Assembly (NCBI GenBank): GCA_964017045.1
Contig: OZ024811.1
Location: 8,767,674-8,831,673 of the forward strand
DNA from: Omphiscola glabra
Taxonomy: Eukaryota; Mollusca; Gastropoda; Lymnaeidae
Length of the DNA stretch: 64,000 bases
Reading direction: 5' to 3'
Shown: piece by piece, positions 610 through 62,732 of the stretch
How the letters are laid out: each line of letters begins with the position of its first letter
How positions within the stretch are numbered: position 1 is the stretch's first letter
The notes under the pieces: generated by a model
What the model was told of the DNA's origin: nothing
What the model saw: the letters and a program-made list of their open reading frames with translations, nothing else
Databases searched by the model: none
Position numbers and translations under genes: made by a program

Positions 610-904
610 TGCCTTGCCAATTCTCACTCTTATGTCGTCGTCTGTCCCTCCTTGTATGTCAATGATGCTGCGAGGTATGTAAAGCTATCCACCTCCTCAA
701 GGTTTGTTCCTTCCAGTGCTATAGGTGTTTTGCTTGATGTATTTATTTTAAGGACTTTTCTTTTTCCTCTATGGATGTTCAGGCCGTTGCAAGCAGAGTA
801 TCGTGCTACATAACTGGTTTTCTCTTGCATCTGTTGCCGTGTGTGTGATAATAGGGCAAGATCATCCACAAAATCAAAATCATCAAGCTGTTTCCATAGT
901 GTCC
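610..904 (-). pseudogene. LINE reverse transcriptase catalytic segment
   Basis: On the minus strand TLWKQLDDFDFVDDLALLSH contains the polymerase box. The two catalytic aspartates are present (about 861-866), with Val in place of the common Ala of FADD. It is followed by GLNIHRGKRKVLKIN and EEVDSFTYL, which are conserved downstream RT and thumb-region pieces. The upstream half of the RT lies beyond the LTR insertion at 1504-1700. Confidence 0.8.
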
Positions 905-1503
905 TGTTATAAGGGATGACGTATTTTAAGACGCTTTGCCCGCCTTCCACGTGCATGACCTCTTTCAAGTCGGTCCTGTGTTGGGGCGGCTAGAAAAAAT
1001 ATCCCTTTGTTGATACTTTTGTTTACTATCGTCCGTTTCTGTGGAACAGGATCGAACGATCTAGAGAATGCGAGAAGCAGTAAGACTGCGTATTCCTTTT
1101 TCCAGAATGATCATCTGAAACTGAGTATAAAAGGGATAAGAATAAATGACGGGAGAGAGATTTTCCTTTCCTTGATTACGAGGCATGCTATGTGTCATAC
1201 TTTGTTGTGTGTAGAGTTTTCTATTTCCTCATACAATTTTGTGCTCATTGTATTTTTAAATACAGTACCAGTACCAGCAAATCTGTAAGTTTATAATTTT
1301 AATAATATTTCTCTTGCTGTTATTATTTACTTGAAGTTCACAAATTAAAAAGTTATTAATTGTAATTAGCTCTGGCCTTGATTGTCGTTTTATTTGTTAT
1401 TATTTTTAACCTTTGGTATCGTCCTTTATTATGGACTGTTTTTAGAACGAGCCCTAGACAAAACAACAGAGATTACATTCTCCATCTATAACGGTCCGTA
1501 ATA
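905..1503 (+). mobile_element. Solo LTR-like element, copy 1, inserted in the LINE
   Basis: A 599-bp block begins TGTTATAAGG and ends CCGTAATA. It interrupts the LINE coding sequence exactly, with GTCC on both sides (901-904 and 1504-1507) as a probable target duplication. A related block occurs at 22603-23221. Shared landmarks are CCACGTGCATGAC, CAGTAAGACTGCGTATTC, a TATAAAAG box (1126-1133) and CAGTACCAGTACCAG. The TG start, the internal TATA box, the short duplication and the absence of a coding region suggest a solo LTR; no gag or pol is present. Confidence 0.65.
1126..1133 (+). promoter_or_regulatory. TATA box of LTR-like copy 1
   Basis: TATAAAAG lies about 220 bp into the element, at the same relative place as in copy 2 (22834-22841). 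This is the expected position for an LTR promoter. Confidence 0.45.
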
Positions 1504-2099: not shown

Positions 2100-2797
2100 T
2101 TACCCTAATATCTTGGAGAGATCGTCTAAACTTAATGCAAATATTGAAATGTTCAATTGGTTAGCCGTATCTGGTGATATCCATGTCGCCTTGTGGATAT
2201 TTCTATTCAGGAAGAGGCTTCCTCCAATCACCAGTCCATCTGTAGCACATAAATCTGCTAGTCTTTCACCATTTTCATTCATCTCTCCCATGCCGTGTGT
2301 TCCCATGCATTCTTCATAGCCTTTATTGTTGCTGCCTATTTTCGCATTTAGGTCACCAATGAGTATAACCACATTGCTCTTAGGACAATTTTGGACAAGG
2401 GTTCGCAGTCTGTTGTAGAAGTCCTCTTTGTCCTCTTCTTTACTATCGTTGGTAGGAGCATATACCTGTAGGATGTGCATATTGACTTTTCGTTCTTAAA
2501 TCTTGCCGTAATTATACGGGGGCCGTGAGATTCCCACCCTATAAGTGCGTTCTGGGCAGTTGTGGAGAGCATGAGCGCCACTCCTTGGTTGTAAGCCGCA
2601 TTTTCATCTTTGTTGCCTGAGTATAGCAGCAGTTCCCCTGTGCTGAGCTTTATCTGACCTGAGCCAATCCATCGAGACTCACTTATTCCTAAGATGGCTA
2701 GTTTATATCTATGCATTTCAGCAGCTACTTGGAAATTTGTCCAGTTTCGAATATGGTCCTTAAGTTCCATGTTCTGAGACAGGGGGTGGTCTTAGTG
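2100..2797 (-). pseudogene. LINE endonuclease domain, frameshifted
   Basis: The minus strand encodes an APE-like endonuclease. RTWNLRT begins near 2797, the glutamate-containing ISESRW follows, and after a frameshift near 2490 the frame continues with VYAPTND and GDLNAKIG, the GDxN motif expected of the nicking enzyme. The family nicks target DNA to prime reverse transcription. The product cannot be made intact here. Confidence 0.8.
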
Positions 2798-6000: not shown

Positions 6001-6297
6001 CGAACGTTTTACAAAAGTTATTATAAATGCGTTTTTATAGGAGTCAAAAAGTATTATTTTTTACTAAAGGAGTGCGTGTACTTTTCCATGTTGCTTAATT
6101 TTAATGTTGAGTAAAAGTCTGTAGAACTTAGTGTTCCGAATGGAATCCCGTGCAACTCCGGGTATATTGATTAGTTATTTGTTAATTTGATTTAGCAATC
6201 TGACGAAACCACTTGGTTCCACGCGTTTGGTAATGGGAAATTAGTAAAATACAGAAAGGTTAAACCTGAAAAAAGGAACGCAACAAAACAACTAACG

Positions 6298-6320
6298 TGT
6301 CGGCATGAAGCCTTCATCAG
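6298..6320 (-). ncRNA. Hammerhead-ribozyme-like core, copy A (decayed)
   Basis: The minus strand reads CTGATGA, a hairpin AGGC-loop-GCC, then GACA. CTGATGA and stem II match a hammerhead core, but the GAAA element is changed to GACA. The sequence downstream (to CAGGTTTAAC near 6260) resembles that after copy C at 21548-21570, so this is probably a Penelope-type terminal repeat remnant. It is unlikely to cleave. Confidence 0.45.
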
Positions 6321-10880: not shown

Positions 10881-10914
10881 TGTAGACACTTTTAGTGTGT
10901 ATCTTAACATTCTC

Positions 10915-13337
10915 TAAACATAGATCACAAGTTTCGACATATGAATCACAAGTCTCTAAATATGAATCACAAGTCTCTAAATGTGGATCACTAGTCTCTA
11001 AATGCGGATCACTTGTCGCTATATGTGGATCACTAGTCTCTAAATGTGGATCACTAGTCTCTAAATGTGGATCACTAGTCTCTTAATGTGGATCACTTGT
11101 CTCTAAATGTGGATCACTTGTCGCTATATGTGGATCACGAGTCTCTAAATGTGGATGACTAGTCTCTAAATGTGGATCACTAGTCTCTAAATGTGGATCC
11201 CTAATCTCTAAATGTGGATCACTTGTCGCTAAATGTGGATCATTAGTATCTTAATGTGGATCACTAGTCTTTAAATGTGGATCACTTGTAGCTTTATGTG
11301 GATAACTAGTCTCTTAATATGGATCACTAGTCTCTTAATGTGGATCACTAGTCTCTAAATATGGATCACTAGTCTCTAAATGTGGATCACTAGTCTCTTA
11401 ATGTGGATCACTTGTCTCTAAATGTGGATCACTTGTCGCTATATGTGGATCACGAGTCTCTAAATGTGGATGACTAGTCTCTAAATGTGGATCACTAGTC
11501 TCTAAATGTGGATCCCTAATCTCTAAATGTGGATCACTAGTCTCTAAATGTGGATCACTTGTCGCTTTATTTGGATTACTAGTCTCTTAATGTGGATCAC
11601 TAGTCTCTTTATGTGGATCACTAGTCTCTTAATGTGGATCACTAATCTCTTAATGTGGATCACTAGTCTCTAAATATGGATCACTAGTCTCTAAATGTGG
11701 ATCACTAGTCTCTAAATGTGAATCACTTGTCGCTATATGTGGAACACCAGTCTCTAAATGTATATCACTAGTCTATTAATGTGGATCACTAGTCTCTAAA
11801 TGTGGATCACTAGTCTCTAAATGTGGATCACTTGTCGCTTTATTTGGATTACTAGTCTCTTAATGTGGATCACTAGTCTCTTAATGTGGATCACTATTCT
11901 CTAAATGTGGATCACGTCGCTTTATTTGGATCACTAGTCTCTAAATATGGATCATTAGTCTCTAAATGTGGATCACTAGTCTCTAAATGTGAATCACTTG
12001 TCGCTATATGTGGATCACCAGTCTCTAAATGTGTATCACTAGTCTATTAATGTGGATCTCTAGTCTCTAAATGTGGATCACTTGTCGCTTTATGTGGATC
12101 ACTAGTTTCTAAATGTGGATCACTAATCTCTAAATGTGGATCACTAGTCTCTTAATGTGGATCACTAGTCTCTAAATGTGGATCACTAGTCTCTTAATGT
12201 GGATCACTAGTCTCTAAATGTGGATCACTAGTCTCTAAATGTGGATCACTAGTCTCTAAATGTTGATCACTAGTCTCTAAATGTGGTTCACTAGTCTCTA
12301 AATGTGGATCACTTGTCGCTTTATGTGGATCACTTGTTTCTAAATGTGGATCACTAATCTCTAAATGTGGATCACTAGTCCCTAATGTGGATCATTAGTC
12401 TCTAAATGTGGTTTACTAGTATCTAAATGTGGATCACTTGTCGCTTTATGTGCATCACAAGTCTCTTAATGTGGATCACTAGTCTCTTTATGTGGATCAC
12501 TAGTCTCTTAATGTGGATCACTAGTCTCTAAATGTGGATCACTAGTCTCTTAATGTGGATCCCTAATCTCTTAATGTCGATCACTAGTCTCTAAATATGG
12601 ATCACTAGTCTCTAAATGTGGATCACTAGTCTCTAAATGTGGAGCACTAGTCTCTAAATGTGAATCACTTGTCGCTATATGTGGATCACGTCTCTAAATG
12701 TGTATCACTAGTCTATTAATGTGGATCACTAGTCTCTAAATATGAATCACTAGTCTCTAAATGTGGATCACTTGTCGCTTTATGTGCATCACTATTTTCT
12801 AAATGTGGATCACTAATCTCTAAATGTGGATCACTAGTCTCCTAATGTGGATTACTAGTCTCTAAATGTGGATCACTAGTCTCTAAATGTTGATCACTAG
12901 TCTCTAAATGTGGTTCACTAGTCTCTAAATGTGGATCATTTGTCGCTTTATGTGGATCACTAGTTTCTAAATGTGGATCACTAATCTCTAAATGTGGATC
13001 ACTAGTCTCTTAATGTGAATCACTAGTCTCTAAATGTGGATGTCTCTTAATGTGGATCACTAGTCTCTAAAAGTTGATCACTAGTCTCTAAATGTGGTTC
13101 ACTAGTCTCTAAATGTGGATCACATATCGCTATATTTGGATCACGGTCTCTTAATGTGGATCACTAGTCTCTAAATGTAGATCACTAGTCTCTAAATGTG
13201 GATCACTATTCTCTAAATGTGGATCACTAGTCTCTAAATGTGGATCACTAGTCTCTAAATGTGGATCACTAGTCTCTAAATGTGGATCACTGGTCTCTAA
13301 ATGTGGATCACTAGTCTCTAAATGTGGATCACTTGTC
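10915..13337. repeat. 21-bp satellite-like array, about 115 monomers
   Basis: The monomer contains TCTCTAAATGTGGATCACTA, recurring every 21 bp for 2.4 kb. Variants (TTAATG, CTTGTCGCTTTATG, CACGAG, GGATGAC) mark higher-order periodicity; for example a GGATGACTAG variant block recurs 315 bp apart (about 11154 and 11469). Frames such as the ETSDPHL repeat (13151-13360, minus) are artefacts. Confidence 0.97.
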
Positions 13338-19690: not shown

Positions 19691-20305
19691 ATGTCAGAAT
19701 CGGAGGAATATTTAAAATATGTATTTATACCCAACGTCCATGATGAACGGTCACGTTTTTGTCTTTTATGCCAAAGTGCGTCTCCGAAGAATCAATGAAG
19801 ATAGATCGTCTTGAGGAACATTTGAAGGCCAAAAATAGTGCTCATATTAACTCAGATTTAAATTACTTACAAACTTTAAAGAGAAACTTATGGAAAATAT
19901 AACAACCTTAAAGTCTATGTTTACTGCTCATACTGCAACTTTCAATCGTACTCTTTGGGCTAATTATGAAATTTCTTTACTCAATACTAAATCTGTGGGA
20001 AAAAAATATATAGGAGAGAATTTAATCAAACCATCAATATCAGTATTCCTTAAAACAGTTCTGGAAAGAGATGACAAAGACGTGATAGCTATGCCTCTCA
20101 TTAACCAAACTGCTAGCAGAAGAATAGATCAAATGAGAAACTACAAAGATGAAAACAAAAACACTTCTCAAAATGATGAATAAACTTTGAGAGGCAATGA
20201 GGCCGTACTGACAACTTATGTAAGATATAAAGAGATTTAGTTAAAGACTTGTTGTTCTGTAAATCATTAGCAAGCACCCATACTGACAAAGATAATATAA
20301 AATCC
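19691..20305 (+). pseudogene. hAT transposase (ZBED5-like) N-terminal part, disrupted
   Basis: The ATG at 19691 opens with SEEYLKYVFI and a CLLC pair, then, after a frameshift near 19796, DRLEEHLKAK. This is a BED-type zinc finger with its CxxC and first His; the final ligand is doubtful. It is followed by NYEISLL, PSISVFLKTVL and TASRRIDQM, and after an in-frame TAA at 20180, TLRGNEAVLTTYVRY, which in ZBED-type hAT transposases follows the first catalytic Asp (here in QNDE). A further stop and frameshift precede DLVKDLLFCKSLAS. Everything C-terminal to about 20305 is missing or displaced, so it cannot transpose. Confidence 0.7.
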
Positions 20306-20480
20306 TAATTCCGGCAACAACTAAGGAGATCTCTAAAATTTTATTTTACTATTCTCTGTTTCTTGTCATACTTCTATTTGTCTTATTCGCTGAGGAAGGC
20401 TCTAAGCCGAAATGTTCAAATCTTATTGTCCTGTCTCTTGATTCCAGTTTCAACATACCTACTTCTACTATTTTGATTTA
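20306..20480 (+). mobile_element. Penelope-like terminal repeat fragment, copy B
   Basis: TTCCGGCAACAACTAAGGAG, ATACTTCTATTTGT and GAAGGCTCTAAGCCGAAAT match the minus-strand sequence at 21515-21655 in order, in inverted orientation. The two therefore bracket about 1.3 kb like the inverted terminal repeats often seen in Penelope-like elements. Confidence 0.55.
20390..20412 (+). ncRNA. Hammerhead-ribozyme-like core, copy B
   Basis: CTGAGGA, then AGGC-TCTAA-GCC (a three-pair stem II), then GAAA. Compared with the canonical CTGATGA core there is one substitution (T to G) at an essential position, so activity is unlikely. Copy C has the intact core. Confidence 0.5.
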
Positions 20481-21112: not shown

Positions 21113-21547
21113 CCGTTTATCATTCGTCCAAATAAGAATAAGAATAAACTATATGAAGTTGCAATTGGTTCATTTTGATATCTATATCTAAAGACCCAAT
21201 TATGCGACAGATTTTAACTTTGGTATAGTCTTTAATTTTAAAATAAACAACCATAATATTTAAACATGGAAATAATTAACCCTCTTAGGTATCGAGGGTA
21301 GGAAATAGGATATTTTCATTTTTACGTGGATGACAATATCTTTAATTTGTCATTCTCTTTTTACAAATAAACATATGGGTACATTTACAAGTATACCCAT
21401 GAATATGTAAAGTTGGTATATATTGTTATGAGATTAATAACATTGCTGCAAAAAAGGCCACTTAATGCTGTTACAGACGTCAATTTCAAATATAAGAACA
21501 AATTATGTTAAACCTTGAATTAATAGACAGGACAAAATATTTGGACG

Positions 21548-21570
21548 TTTCGGCTTAGAGCCTTCATCAG
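21548..21570 (-). ncRNA. Hammerhead-ribozyme-like core, copy C (core intact)
   Basis: The minus strand has an exact CTGATGA, stem II AGGC-TCTAA-GCC, and GAAAC. It sits in the terminal repeat downstream of a Penelope-like coding end, where hammerhead motifs are known in this class. I could not identify convincing stem I and stem III partners or the UH cleavage site, so the motif is supported by core and context only. Confidence 0.6.
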
Positions 21571-21748
21571 CAACAAAATAAATAGAAGTATATCAAGTAA
21601 CAGAGCACAGTAAAAAAAACTTTGGAGGGTCTCCTATTTAGTTGCCGGAAGTAGGAACACAGGAAGTGAAAGAATAGTAGAGAATCTTAACGGACCAAAA
21701 TATTTAGGGATGCATAAAATATAAGGAATAAGAAAAAATTGAGATACA

Positions 21749-21985
21749 TTAGAAGGAGAGTATTTGATTCATATCATGTGGAGATATGGTGCCGAAAAGC
21801 TGAACAAATCTGTTTTCCAAATTAACTCTCTGTGGTATTTGTGTGCAAGAAATAAGTGCCGTAATGGATACATCCATTGCACCATTATGTTGCTCTCTGT
21901 TGAAATGTGAAGAGACTGGGGAAAGTTTACCTTGTTCAATATTCCGAAAATGATCTGTGAATCTATCTACCAATCTTCTCCCAGT
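21749..21985 (-). pseudogene. Penelope-like GIY-YIG endonuclease C-terminus
   Basis: The minus strand reads TGRRLVDRFTDHFRNIEQGK, then SPVSSHFNREQHNGAMDVSI, and ends VQLFGTISPHDMNQILSF before a stop. TGRRL-RF-H, HF-H-G and the closing FGT-HG-like motif are characteristic of the GIY-YIG nuclease fused to Penelope reverse transcriptases. The usual YIGE just upstream is destroyed by stops, and no RT is found next to it. Confidence 0.75.
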
Positions 21986-22129
21986 TTATAACTAGAATGA
22001 AATCTATGGCACACAATATAATACATCAGGGAGACTGAAGACTAAAGCCGACTAAATGGGAGCCTAACATAAAATCTATGTGCAGCAAACATAAAGTTTC
22101 TCATTAAATTAGTCATTTGACACTTTATT

Positions 22130-22602
22130 TGTGATCTTATATTGTATTTGTGATCTTATATTTTATGTGTGATCTTATATTGTATTTGTCATCGAAAATG
22201 TATTTGTGATTTCACACTATATTTTTTTATCTCAAACTGTATTTCTGATCCCTCAGTGTAGTTGTGATCTCATACTGTATTTATGATCTCACACAGTATT
22301 TGTGAATTCTCACTGTATTTTTGATCCCACACAGTATTAGTGATCTCAAACTGTATTTATGATCTCACACTGTATTTGTGATCTAACATTGTATTTGTGA
22401 TCTCACACTGTATTTGTTTTCTCACACAGTATTAGTGATCTCACACTGCATTTGTGATCTCACACTGCAATTGTTATCTAACACTGTATTTGTGTTCTAA
22501 CACGGTATTTGTGATCTAACCCTGTAATTGGGATTTAACACTGCATTTGTGATCATACACTTTATTTGTTATCATAGACTGTATTTGTGATCTCAGACTG
22601 TA
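22130..22602. repeat. 19-bp minisatellite, left half
   Basis: GTATTTGTGATCTCACACT variants repeat about 24 times. The array is interrupted by the LTR-like element and resumes at 23222. Confidence 0.85.
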
Positions 22603-23221
22603 TGTTATGCAGGTGAAGTGTTTTGAGTTAAAGCACGCCTTCCTCGCTTTCCACGTGCATGACATCTCGAAGTCTCGAGGCCACGTTTTGGAGTGTGGCT
22701 AACGAAATTAAACCTTGTTTACAACAACACTTATTATCGTCCGTTCCAGTCAGGAAAATTGTCGAATAGTCAAGAGGATGCGGGAAGCAGTAAGACTGCG
22801 TATTCTTTTCGAGAAATATCATTTGAAGTAGACTATAAAAGGGCTAAAAATTGAATGGAGAGTGATAGAGATCCCTTTATCACGAGACGTGTGGCGTGTG
22901 TCATTAATGTACTAGACAGTGCTTTGTTGTGTGTAGATTTTCTTTCATTGTGCAAATTATGCTCATTGTATTTTTTATTAACACAGTACCAGTACCAGCC
23001 AAATGGTAAGTTAATAATTTTAATAATATTTTCTTGCTTTTGTAATTCATTGATATTGACACATTAAAAATTTATTAATTGTAATTAACTCTGGCTTTGA
23101 GTATCGTATTATTTGTTATTGTATTTAAACATTGGTATCATCCTTTGTTATGAACTGTTTTTGGAACGAGCCATATACTTAAATAAGAGAAAAAATTATC
23201 CATTAATAACAGTCCGTAATA
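22603..23221 (+). mobile_element. Solo LTR-like element, copy 2, inserted in the minisatellite
   Basis: Starts TGTTATGCAGG, ends CAGTCCGTAATA, flanked by CTGTA (22598-22602 and 23222-23226). It is collinear with 905-1503 over its whole length (CCACGTGCATGACAT, AGTAAGACTGCGTATTC, TATAAAAG, GTACCAGTACCAGC, ACAGTCCGTAAT). No internal coding region is present. Confidence 0.65.
22834..22841 (+). promoter_or_regulatory. TATA box of LTR-like copy 2
   Basis: TATAAAAG is conserved in place with copy 1, about 230 bp into the element. Confidence 0.45.
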
Positions 23222-23338
23222 CTGTATTTGTGATCTCACACTTTATTTGTAATTTAACTATGTATTTGTGATCTCACACTGTATTTGTGATCTCACACTG
23301 CATTTGTGATCTCACACTGTATTTGTGATCTCTCAATG
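23222..23338. repeat. 19-bp minisatellite, right half
   Basis: The same GTATTTGTGATCTCACACT units as at 22130-22602 resume exactly at the LTR boundary. Confidence 0.85.
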
Positions 23339-42859: not shown

Positions 42860-55672
<12,813 letters not shown>

Positions 55673-57850: not shown

Positions 57851-57851
57851 T

Positions 57852-59130
57852 GGTGGGACTGCTGATTGATTTTTAGGACTGCTGATTGATTGGTGGGACT
57901 GCTGATTGATTGGTGGGACTGCTGATTGATTGGTGGGACTGCTGATTGATTGGTGGACTGCTGATTGATTGGTAGGACTGCTGATTGATTGGTAGGACTG
58001 CTGATTGATTGGTAGGACTGCTGATTGATTGGTGGACTGCTGATTGATTGGTGGACTGCTGATTGATTGGTGGACTGCTGATTGATTGGTGGACTGCTGA
58101 TTGATTGGTGGGACTGCTGATTGATTGGTGGACTGCTGATTGATTGGTAGGACTGCTGATTGATTGGTAGGACTGCTGATTGATTGGTAGGACTGCTGAT
58201 TGATTGGTGGACTGCTGATTGATTGGTGGACTGCTGATTGATTGGTGGGACTGCTGATTGATTGGTGGACTGCTGATTGATTGGTAGGACTGCTGATTGA
58301 TTGGTAGGACTGCTGATTGATTGGTAGGACTGCTGATTGATTGGTGGACTGCTGATTGATTGGTGGACTGCTGATTGATAGGTGGACTGCTGATTGATTG
58401 GTAGGATTGCTGATTGATTGGTGGGACTGCTGATTGATTCTTGAGACTTCTGATTGATTGGTGGGACTGCTGATTGATTCTTGAGACTTCTGATTGATTG
58501 GTGGGACTGCTGATTGATTCTTGAGACTTCTGATTGATTCTTGAGACTTCTGATTGATTCTTGAGACTGCTGATTGATTGGTGGGACTGCTGATTGATTG
58601 GTGGGACTGCTGATTGATTGGTGGGACTGCTGATTGATTGGTGGGACTGCTGATTGATTGGTGGGACTGCTGATTGATTGGTAGGATTGCTGATTGATTG
58701 GTGGGACTGCTGATTGATTCTTGAGACTTCTGATTGATTGGTGGGACTGCTGATTGATTCTTGAGACTTCTGATTGATTGGTGGGACTGCTGATTGATTC
58801 TTGAGACTTCTGATTGATTCTTGAGACTTCTGATTGATTCTTGAGACTGCTGATTGATTCTTGAGACTTCTGATTGATTCTTGAGACTGCTGATTGATTG
58901 GTGGGACTGCTGATTGATTGGTAGGAGTGCTGATTGATTGGTAGGACTGCTGATTGATTGTTGAGACTGCTGATTGATCGGTAGGACTGCTGATTGATTG
59001 GTAGGACTGCTGATTGATTGGTAGGCATGCTGATTGATTGGTAGGACTGCTGATTGATTGTTGAGACTGCTGATTGATCGGTAGGACTGCTGATTGATTG
59101 GTGGGGCTGCTGATTGATTGGTTGGACTGT
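57852..59130. repeat. 19-20 bp minisatellite, about 64 copies
   Basis: GGTGGGACTGCTGATTGATT with GGTAGGAC, GGTGGAC and CTTGAGACTTC variants. Because the 20-bp period shifts frame each unit and the unit lacks stops on the minus strand, two frames stay open for about 400 codons (NQSAVPPINQQS). These are not genes. Confidence 0.97.
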
Positions 59131-61478: not shown

Positions 61479-62005
61479 GCTGTCATATTTAGGGATGTGC
61501 TGTCATATTTAGGGATGTGCTGTCATATTTAGGGATGTGCTGTCATATTTAGGGATGTGCTGTCATATTTAGGGATGTGCTGTCATATTTAGGGATGTGC
61601 TGTCATATTTAGGGATGTGCTGTCATATTTAGGGATGTGCTGTCATATTTAGGGATGTGCTGTCATATTTAGGGATGAGCTGTCATATTTAGGGATGAGC
61701 TGTCATATTTAGGGATGTGCTGTCATATTTAGGGATGAGCTGTCTTATTTAGGGATGTGCTGTCATATTTAGGGATGTGCTGTCATATTTAGGGATGTGC
61801 TGTCATATTTAGGGATGTGCTGTCATATTTAGGGATGTGCTGTCATATTTAGGGATGTGCTGTCATATTTAGGGATGTGCTGTCATATTTAGGGATGTGC
61901 TGTCATATTTAGGAATGTGCTGTCATATTTAGGGATGTGCTGTCATATTTAGGGATGTACTGTCATATTTAGGGATGTGCTGTCAAATTTAGGGATGTAC
62001 TGTCA
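61479..62005. repeat. 20-bp minisatellite, about 26 copies
   Basis: GCTGTCATATTTAGGGATGT repeats with very few substitutions (GAGC, TTAT, GGAA variants). Confidence 0.97.
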
Positions 62006-62218
62006 TTTTAATGTTGGGCCATCAATTTTAGTGAAGTGCTGTTTATTTTAGTGGTTGTGCCACATCAGAAATGTCCTGTCATTTTAGTGGTGTGTCACTT
62101 ATTGTTGATTTGATCTCTTCTTGTCATTTTTACTGTTGTGATTTCATTAGAGTTCTATTTGTCTCAGTTGCCATCAGTGTCTAATTGTCTTAGTTCCTGT
62201 CAGTGTCATATTATCTCA

Positions 62219-62732
62219 GTAGCTGTCATTGTTGTGTTAGTGCACGCAAGGTAAAGCTCACATACTATAGTAGCTGTCATTGTTGTGTTAGTGCACACAG
62301 GGTAAAGCTCACATACTATAGTAGCTGTCATTGTTGTGTTAGTGCACGCAAGGTAAAGCTCACATACTATAGTAGCTGTCATTGTTGTGTTAGTGCACGC
62401 AAGGTAAAGCTCACATACTATAGTAGCTGTCATTGTTGTGTTAGTGCACGCAAGGTAAAGCTCACATACTATAGTAGCTGTCATTGTTGTGTTAGTGCAC
62501 GCAAGGTAAAGCTCACATACTATAGTAGCTGTCATTGTTGTGTTAGTGCACGCAAGGTAAAGCTCACATACTATAGTAGCTGTCATTGTTGTGTTAGTGC
62601 ACGCAAGGTAAAGCTCACATACTATAGTAGCTGTCATTGTTGTGTTAGTGCACGCAAGGTAAAGCTCACATACTATAGTAGCTGTCATTGTTGTGTTAGT
62701 GCACGCAAGGTAAAGCTCACATGCTATAGTAG
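62219..62732. repeat. 51-bp minisatellite, about 10 copies
   Basis: TAGCTGTCATTGTTGTGTTA, GTGCACGCAAGGTAAAGCTC and ACATACTATAG repeat. The period is a multiple of three and stop-free in one frame on each strand, which explains the 198-aa and 160-aa open frames. The unit holds CAAGGTAAAG, a donor-like site. Confidence 0.97.

What the first reader, a model, noticed from the sequence alone, without database searches (positions are those of the whole stretch)
21548..21985. Penelope-like element end carrying an intact hammerhead-ribozyme core
On the minus strand a GIY-YIG nuclease C-terminus is followed by non-coding DNA holding CTGATGA, a paired stem II and GAAAC. Seen: the exact core and coding context. 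Known: Penelope-like elements of many animals carry hammerhead motifs in their terminal repeats. Inferred: this copy may still self-cleave. Stems I and III and the cleavage site could not be assigned.
Basis: partly seen in the sequence, partly recalled or inferred. Interest (0 to 1): 0.75.

Follow-up and report, generated by a model that had tools for sequence, protein, structure and literature searches.

The report
Retrotransposon remnant with worn hammerhead ribozyme
The stretch is the worn-out tail of a Penelope-like jumping gene that still shows the core of a small self-cutting RNA; this is a known kind of thing and this copy is probably inert, but a sister family with about a thousand copies in the same genome carries a mutation expected to disable the self-cutting RNA, which suggests the element can spread without it.

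Summary
On the minus strand, 21570-21544 reads CTGATGA-A-GGCT/CTA/AGCC-GAAAC-GTC, about 180 nt after the stop of a decayed 78-aa GIY-YIG-like C-terminus. The exact 27-mer occurs 148 times in the 745-Mb source genome, against 0 for the reversed pattern. An alignment with 40 of these copies shows a 5-bp stem I just outside the core, with G-C/U-A exchange at the first pair. The predicted cut is GUC^, directly after GAAAC. Helix III is missing, as published for hammerheads of Penelope-like elements (PLEs). Rfam does not see this form: no hammerhead in 20 relatives, 13 of which have the motif.

This copy is a 5'-truncated remnant with stem I worn to 3 bp and no working same-strand partner in the window. 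Self-cleavage is unlikely. The motif overlaps the start of the element's reading frame.

A sister subfamily (window copy 6294-6320) has 1,053 pattern matches in which essential A14 is C; nearly the same background with A gives 17. That subfamily amplified with a core expected to be inactive, which is the one point of real interest.

The parts
21749..21985 (-). C-terminal remnant (78 aa plus stop) of the GIY-YIG endonuclease end of the PLE reading frame; upstream, stops interrupt the part where the YIG motif would lie
   Evidence: 150 matches scored in the genome, next best 79% identity
21488..21748 (-). pseudo-LTR with 3' 'tail' of the element (ends approximate)
   Evidence: 21488-21656 is 80% identical to 20303-20473 (+); size agrees with the 218-bp pLTR plus 31-bp tail published for a rotifer PLE (PMC3846280)
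21544..21570 (-). minimal type I hammerhead core: CUGAUGA, unpaired A, stem II GGCU/AGCC with loop CUA, GAAAC, GUC; predicted cleavage between 21544 and 21543
   Evidence: 148 exact genome copies, reversed control 0
21571..21573 (-). 5' strand of stem I, 3 contiguous pairs left (5 in the family)
21541..21543 (-). 3' strand of stem I
21520..21567 (-). start of the element's reading frame (ATG inside CUGAUGA), 15 codons then a stop in this copy; open for more than 20 codons in 31 of 40 A-type copies
20303..20473 (+). second, solo pLTR fragment of the same family; hammerhead letters at 20390-20416 keep all invariant positions (position 7 = G, H17 = U)
6294..6320 (-). fragment of the sister (B-type) subfamily: GACAC in place of GAAAC

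Best explanation
The feature is the 3' end of an old, 5'-truncated Penelope-like retroelement: GIY-YIG C-terminus, stop, pseudo-LTR, then a tail that repeats the start of the reading frame. A minimal type I hammerhead sits across that start codon. Shown: core, stem II, a 5-bp stem I in the family, GUC directly after GAAAC, no helix III, many decayed copies. Inferred from published work on PLEs: in an intact element, transcripts of tandem copies form a double hammerhead whose shared helix III is the palindrome ACGU, and cleave after GUC, perhaps helped by the element's protein. In this copy stem I is reduced to 3 bp, the coding part is broken and no working same-strand partner lies in the window, so it most likely no longer cleaves.
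For: Exact motif and position. 148 genome copies against 0 controls. Stem I paired in 86.6% of cells over 39 distinct rows, with G-C 10 and U-A 19 at the first pair; whole structure 92.6% paired against 56% and 58% when slid by one column. In 20 relatives picked by protein and not by ribozyme (20 of the 22 best), 13 have a recognisable motif, 13 of 13 keep A14, 7 of 13 keep all twelve core letters, and 4.3 of 5 stem I pairs form on average. 78-aa frame related to 150 scored places; longer frames with YIDDG and YIGETGRR. Frame MKALSRNV... from the ATG in the core, comparable with the Anolis PLE whose frame starts at stem II (PMC11167929). Monomer fold traps the core; active dimer of this copy at -6.5 against -18.9 kcal/mol for the best dimer.
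Against: No Rfam hammerhead match, though Rfam also misses the relatives. GIY-YIG was not recognised by Pfam or NCBIfam; RVT_1 reaches only E 0.063 in L051 and nothing in L052. An extra unpaired A lies between A9 and stem II (18 of 18 and 14 of 14 rows). The stem I exchange is not shown to be several independent events: 5 changes on the best tree, 1 forced by supported branches. No copy with two same-strand motifs was seen (0 of 40), so the double hammerhead in cis is untested here. Core letters are not significantly better kept than flanks between the two window copies (24 of 27 against 115 of 140, p 0.57). The number of shuffles reaching the count of pairs changed on both sides was 47 of 500. 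Folding energies are no better than shuffles.
Confidence: 0.88

Rival explanations
1. The motif is kept only because it is the start of the protein-coding frame; the hammerhead letters are a relic and no copy family selects for cleavage.
For: The ATG in CUGAUGA opens a frame in both subfamilies, MKALSRNV and MKASCRHV. The B-type keeps the other 11 core letters in 12 of 16 copies although A14 is lost.
Against: In the A-type, stem I pairs an untranslated strand with codon 9, and the first pair goes G-C to U-A together with a Gln/Lys change. A14 is kept in 13 of 13 protein-selected A-type copies with the motif.
Confidence: 0.2
2. This very copy is still a working self-cleaving ribozyme.
For: All twelve core letters and stem II are intact. 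Helix III could be made in trans through the palindrome ACGU.
Against: Stem I is 3 bp and the core-trapping fold is preferred. The only other same-strand motif in the window is 15 kb away and has a broken core. The published Anolis PLE ribozyme shows no cleavage without protein (PMC11167929).
Confidence: 0.06
3. Chance match of a short motif in AT-rich repeats.
For: The core is short, and 1 of 100 Markov sequences gives a hit to the wide descriptor.
Against: 148 exact copies genome-wide, 0 in the reversed control; 172-bp homology around it inside the window, E 1e-34.
Confidence: 0.01
4. A metazoan retrozyme (small non-autonomous circular-RNA repeat) and not a PLE.
For: Retrozymes of animals also carry type I hammerheads (PMC7229834, passages).
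Against: GIY-YIG-like C-terminus upstream and start-codon overlap. No tandem array listed in the window covers the motif, and there is no second same-strand motif in 40 of 40 loci. Helix III is absent.
Confidence: 0.03

Closest known systems
Minimal type I hammerhead motifs of Penelope-like elements (Cervera and De la Pena 2014; Lunse, Weinberg and Breaker 2017; both known here only through citing papers)
   Same: Type I order, no helix III, location in the pseudo-LTR, host element with GIY-YIG
   Different: This copy has a worn stem I and an extra unpaired A before stem II; a letter-by-letter comparison with the published motifs was not possible
Poseidon of Anolis carolinensis (PAc), PMC11167929
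   Same: Hammerhead with stem I and stem II overlapping the start of the reading frame; GIY-YIG C-terminus; tail that repeats the frame's start
   Different: In PAc the frame starts at stem II; here the ATG lies inside CUGAUGA. PAc is tandem and full length, this copy is a fragment
Adineta vaga Penelope families, PMC3846280
   Same: pLTR of about 200 bp that includes the first codons, optional tail, solo and inverted pLTRs
   Different: Tail-to-tail arrangement of the two window copies, most likely two separate insertions

Membership tests
Hammerhead ribozyme | Conserved core C3 U4 G5 A6 N G8 A9 / G12 A13 A14 A15.1 / U16.1 H17 | tested here: met
   21544-21570 (-)
Hammerhead ribozyme | Stem II | tested here: met
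   GGCU/AGCC, 4 pairs; one extra A before it
Hammerhead ribozyme | Stem I that presents the cleavage site | tested here: inconclusive
   Met in the family (86.6% of cells paired; 4.3 of 5 in protein-selected copies); 3 contiguous pairs in this copy, about 6% expected by chance
Hammerhead ribozyme | Stem III | tested here: not met
   No intervening loop between C15.2 and G16.2, so none can form in a monomer; ACGU can pair between two copies. Published as normal for PLE hammerheads (PMC6155905, PMC7761336, passages)
Hammerhead ribozyme | Match to an Rfam covariance model | tested here: not met
   also absent in 20 of 20 relatives, 13 with the motif
Hammerhead ribozyme | Self-cleavage | not testable with these tools
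   needs an RNA assay
Penelope-like element | GIY-YIG endonuclease at the C-terminus | tested here: inconclusive
   No profile match; YIGETGRR in related frames; residues R, H, E, N read by recalled motif
Penelope-like element | Reverse transcriptase in the same frame | tested here: inconclusive
   Truncated here; L051 frame has YIDDG upstream of the YIG, RVT_1 E 0.063 below cut-off
Penelope-like element | Pseudo-LTR with tail that includes the frame's start | tested here: met
   compare PMC3846280 and PMC11167929
Penelope-like element | Tandem or inverted pLTR arrangement | tested here: inconclusive
   No tandem partner in 40 of 40 A-type loci; four head-to-head pairs of B-type motifs within 700 bp among the 100 places listed, all on contig C1

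The most novel reading that the evidence does not exclude
In this genome a PLE subfamily spread to about a thousand exact-motif copies while carrying a hammerhead that should be inactive (A14 changed to C in 1,053 pattern matches against 17 with A, and only 2 of 5 stem I pairs). A sister subfamily kept a consensus core. If so, ribozyme cleavage is dispensable for PLE amplification in nature, and the conserved letters that remain are held by the start of the protein.
Probability: 0.55. Interest if true: 0.5.

Novelty: new member of a known kind. Interest (0 to 1): 0.3.

Why it matters
The role of the PLE hammerhead is described as unknown in a review (PMC7761336, passages read), and in vitro the Anolis element inserts without it (PMC11167929). 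Two sister subfamilies in one genome, one with a consensus core and one with a core expected to be dead, make the question testable with natural sequences. The locus itself is an ordinary remnant. It also shows that Rfam's hammerhead models overlook the form found here.

Tried and rejected
Rfam on the window and on small stretches: no hammerhead; the control on 20 relatives showed the models do not see this form. Pfam, NCBIfam and the PDB by sequence: nothing for the 78-aa frame beyond one chance-level PDB match, E 1.2. Protein database searches: none. Viral and prokaryotic contig scans for the motif: none; prokaryotic contigs for the frame: none. Two viral loci matched 25 residues of the frame; I opened one (L001), the match lies in a tailed-phage-like stretch, and I rejected both as chance. 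AlphaFold of the 78-aa frame: mean pLDDT 43.6, not used. Single-strand folding energies are no better than shuffles (one of the stretches folded, L087, was cut at the wrong place and lacks most of the motif). Core against flank conservation of the two window copies: no difference. I at first took the GACAC copy at 6294-6320 for a decayed A-type; L051 and the 16 showed it is a subfamily trait. The tree meant to show independent stem I exchanges was too weakly supported.

Papers. PMC11167929: the main-text section in full and passages. PMC6155905, PMC7229834, PMC7761336, PMC3846280, PMC6466107, PMC6431247, PMC4075628: passages only. Cervera and De la Pena 2014, Lunse et al. 2017 and Arkhipova et al. 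2017 are not held, so whether PLE hammerheads with a lost A14 are already in print was not checked there. The library listing for 'Penelope-like' with 'hammerhead' gave 22 papers, of which I looked into six (PMC11167929, PMC6155905, PMC7229834, PMC7761336, PMC6466107, PMC6431247); PMC3846280 came and PMC4075628.

Full report
OBSERVATION. The minus strand at 21570-21544 reads CTGATGAAGGCTCTAAGCCGAAACGTC. The core pattern with 12-nt spacer is found once in the window and in 0 of 100 shuffles. A 78-aa open frame ends at 21749, about 180 nt before the motif. It could not place stems I and III or the cut.

ELEMENT. Inside the window, 21488-21656 (-) matches 20303-20473 (+) at 80% over 172 bp, so the motif belongs to a repeat. 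The window's genome turned out to be held: 744.8 Mb in 37 contigs, window on C19. The exact 27-mer occurs 148 times there (75 + 73) and its reversed control 0 times. I fetched the first 40 of the 100 places listed. By BLAST, similarity to other fetched copies ends within 200 nt upstream of the motif in 32 of 40; this understates some, as L046 has a frame relative further out. Relatives of the 78-aa frame occur in 7 of 40 loci, in one of them (L040) almost 4 kb away. The frame itself has 150 scored matches in the genome, out of 2,825 candidates, so this is a lower bound. The longest related frame fetched (L051, 398 aa) contains YIDDG and, near its end, YIGETGRR; L052 contains YAIVCRRCHSSYIGETGRR. 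Pfam sees only a sub-threshold RVT_1 match in L051, E 0.063, and nothing in L052. That these are the RT and GIY-YIG signatures of Penelope-like elements is recalled knowledge, consistent with the description in PMC11167929 (section read). The size and order of parts (stop, about 180 nt, motif, about 60 nt, end) fit a pLTR of about 200 bp plus tail, as published for rotifer PLEs (PMC3846280, passages).

RIBOZYME. Aligning the window copy with 40 exact-core copies shows a helix directly outside the core: five pairs, then unpaired positions. At the first pair, 11 of 41 are G-C and 21 of 41 are U-A. Over 39 distinct rows the proposed structure is paired in 92.6% of cells, against 56.1% and 58.4% when slid by one column. 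The covariation score is 0.119 against 0.064 (sd 0.013) in shuffles, reached in 0 of 500, but the number of pairs changed on both sides is reached in 47 of 500. Stem II cannot vary in this set, because the core was the search key. On a tree of 37 rows the exchange needs 5 changes, but supported branches force only 1, so repeated compensation is not proven. A second set of 20 copies was chosen by protein similarity alone (69-79% identity, 20 of the 22 best): 13 of 20 have a recognisable motif, 13 of 13 keep A14, 7 of 13 keep all twelve core letters, and stem I has 4.3 of 5 pairs on average. There is no room for helix III between GAAAC and GUC. PLE hammerheads are described as minimal forms lacking helix III (PMC6155905, PMC7761336, passages) and as cleaving as dimers (title of Lunse et al. 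as cited there). ACGU is its own complement, so two copies could share a 4-bp helix III. Rfam's models miss all of this: no hammerhead in the window nor in the 20 protein-chosen relatives.

START CODON. The ATG inside CUGAUGA opens a similar frame in A-type copies (MKALSRNVKIFCPVYEFKFSIPCSY...) and in B-type copies (MKASCRHVRCFVAFLLSGLTLL...). It stays open for more than 20 codons in 31 of 40 A-type and 8 of 12 B-type copies that were translated. The hammerhead thus overlaps the start of the element's protein, and the 3' end of inserted copies repeats that start. The Anolis element has the same overlap with a slightly different register. In the window copy the frame stops after 15 codons.

STATE OF THIS COPY. 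In the alignment it has one letter fewer next to the core than relatives, which leaves three contiguous stem I pairs; three are expected by chance in about 6% of random pairs of sites. The monomer's best fold pairs GAUG of the core with CGUC of the cleavage site; the same trap appears in three relatives folded, so it does not single out this copy. The active dimer is predicted at -6.5 kcal/mol against -18.9 for the best dimer fold. The only other same-strand motif found in the window, at 6320, is 15 kb away and lacks A14. Published work reports no cleavage of the Anolis ribozyme without protein. I judge cleavage by this copy unlikely (about 6%).

SISTER SUBFAMILY. In L051 the motif reads CTGATGAAGGCTTCCTGCCGACACGTT, the form also seen in the window at 6294-6320 with TTCAT in the loop. 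Of 20 places that I picked by protein similarity (49-57% identity, 19 of 20 without an inner stop), 16 have the motif, 0 of 16 keep A14, 12 of 16 keep the other eleven letters, and stem I has 2.0 of 5 pairs. Genome-wide, CTGATGAAGGCNNNNNGCCGACACGTT has 1,053 exact matches and CTGATGAAGGCTTCNTGCCGAAACGTT 17; both controls are 0. The first pattern is a little wider: 6 of its 100 listed places fall outside TTCNT. These counts, and the 148 of the A-type 27-mer, are exact-motif counts and not family sizes. Mutation of A14 lowers hammerhead activity more than 100-fold (PMC4075628, passage). The simplest reading is that the master copies of this subfamily had already lost the ribozyme when they amplified. 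Median pairwise identity in the 3' region is 0.774 for 18 B-type rows and 0.721 for 14 A-type rows, so the B-type is at most moderately younger. The activity of either form was not measured. The 27 motif letters are better conserved than the rest of the fetched 3' region in both (0.96 against 0.82 in the B-type, 0.93 against 0.81 in the A-type), which the overlapping start of the frame can explain without a ribozyme.

VERDICT. The locus is an ordinary, decayed member of a known kind. The sister subfamily is a natural experiment worth a specialist's attention, subject to the two primary papers on PLE hammerheads that could not be read here.

Noticed in passing
6294-6320 (-): B-type PLE motif with GACAC; 1,053 pattern matches in the genome against 17 with GAAAC in nearly the same background.
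   Followed up: yes
20303-20473 (+): Solo pLTR of the A-type family, tail-to-tail with the main copy, keeping all invariant hammerhead letters with H17 = U.
   Followed up: partly
22120-22603 and 23221-23332: A 19-bp minisatellite begins next to where the element's recognisable part ends (about 22119) and recurs 600 bp further on.
   Followed up: no
2103-2495 (-) and 633-989 (-): Remnants of a non-LTR retrotransposon: Exo_endo_phos_2 E 7e-5 and RVT_1 E 0.013, both below Pfam cut-offs.
   Followed up: no
10911-13337, 57851-59129, 61479-62010, 62218-62732, 46767-47123: Large tandem arrays, among them 116 copies of 21 bp, 65 of 20 bp, and 6.2 copies of 58 bp at 100% matches.
   Followed up: no
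L049:3384-3779: The end of the GIY-YIG frame (TISPHGMNQILS and variants) is repeated several times in a row in one copy.
   Followed up: no
G000 C1: 30457617(-)/30457703(+), 29565991(-)/29566179(+), 48362242(-)/48362930(+), 71827187(-)/71827405(+): Close head-to-head pairs of B-type motifs, as expected for inverted pLTRs of Penelope elements.
   Followed up: no
L028:151-387 (-): A second GIY-YIG relative (48% identity to the window frame) on the opposite strand of the same 5-kb locus.
   Followed up: no
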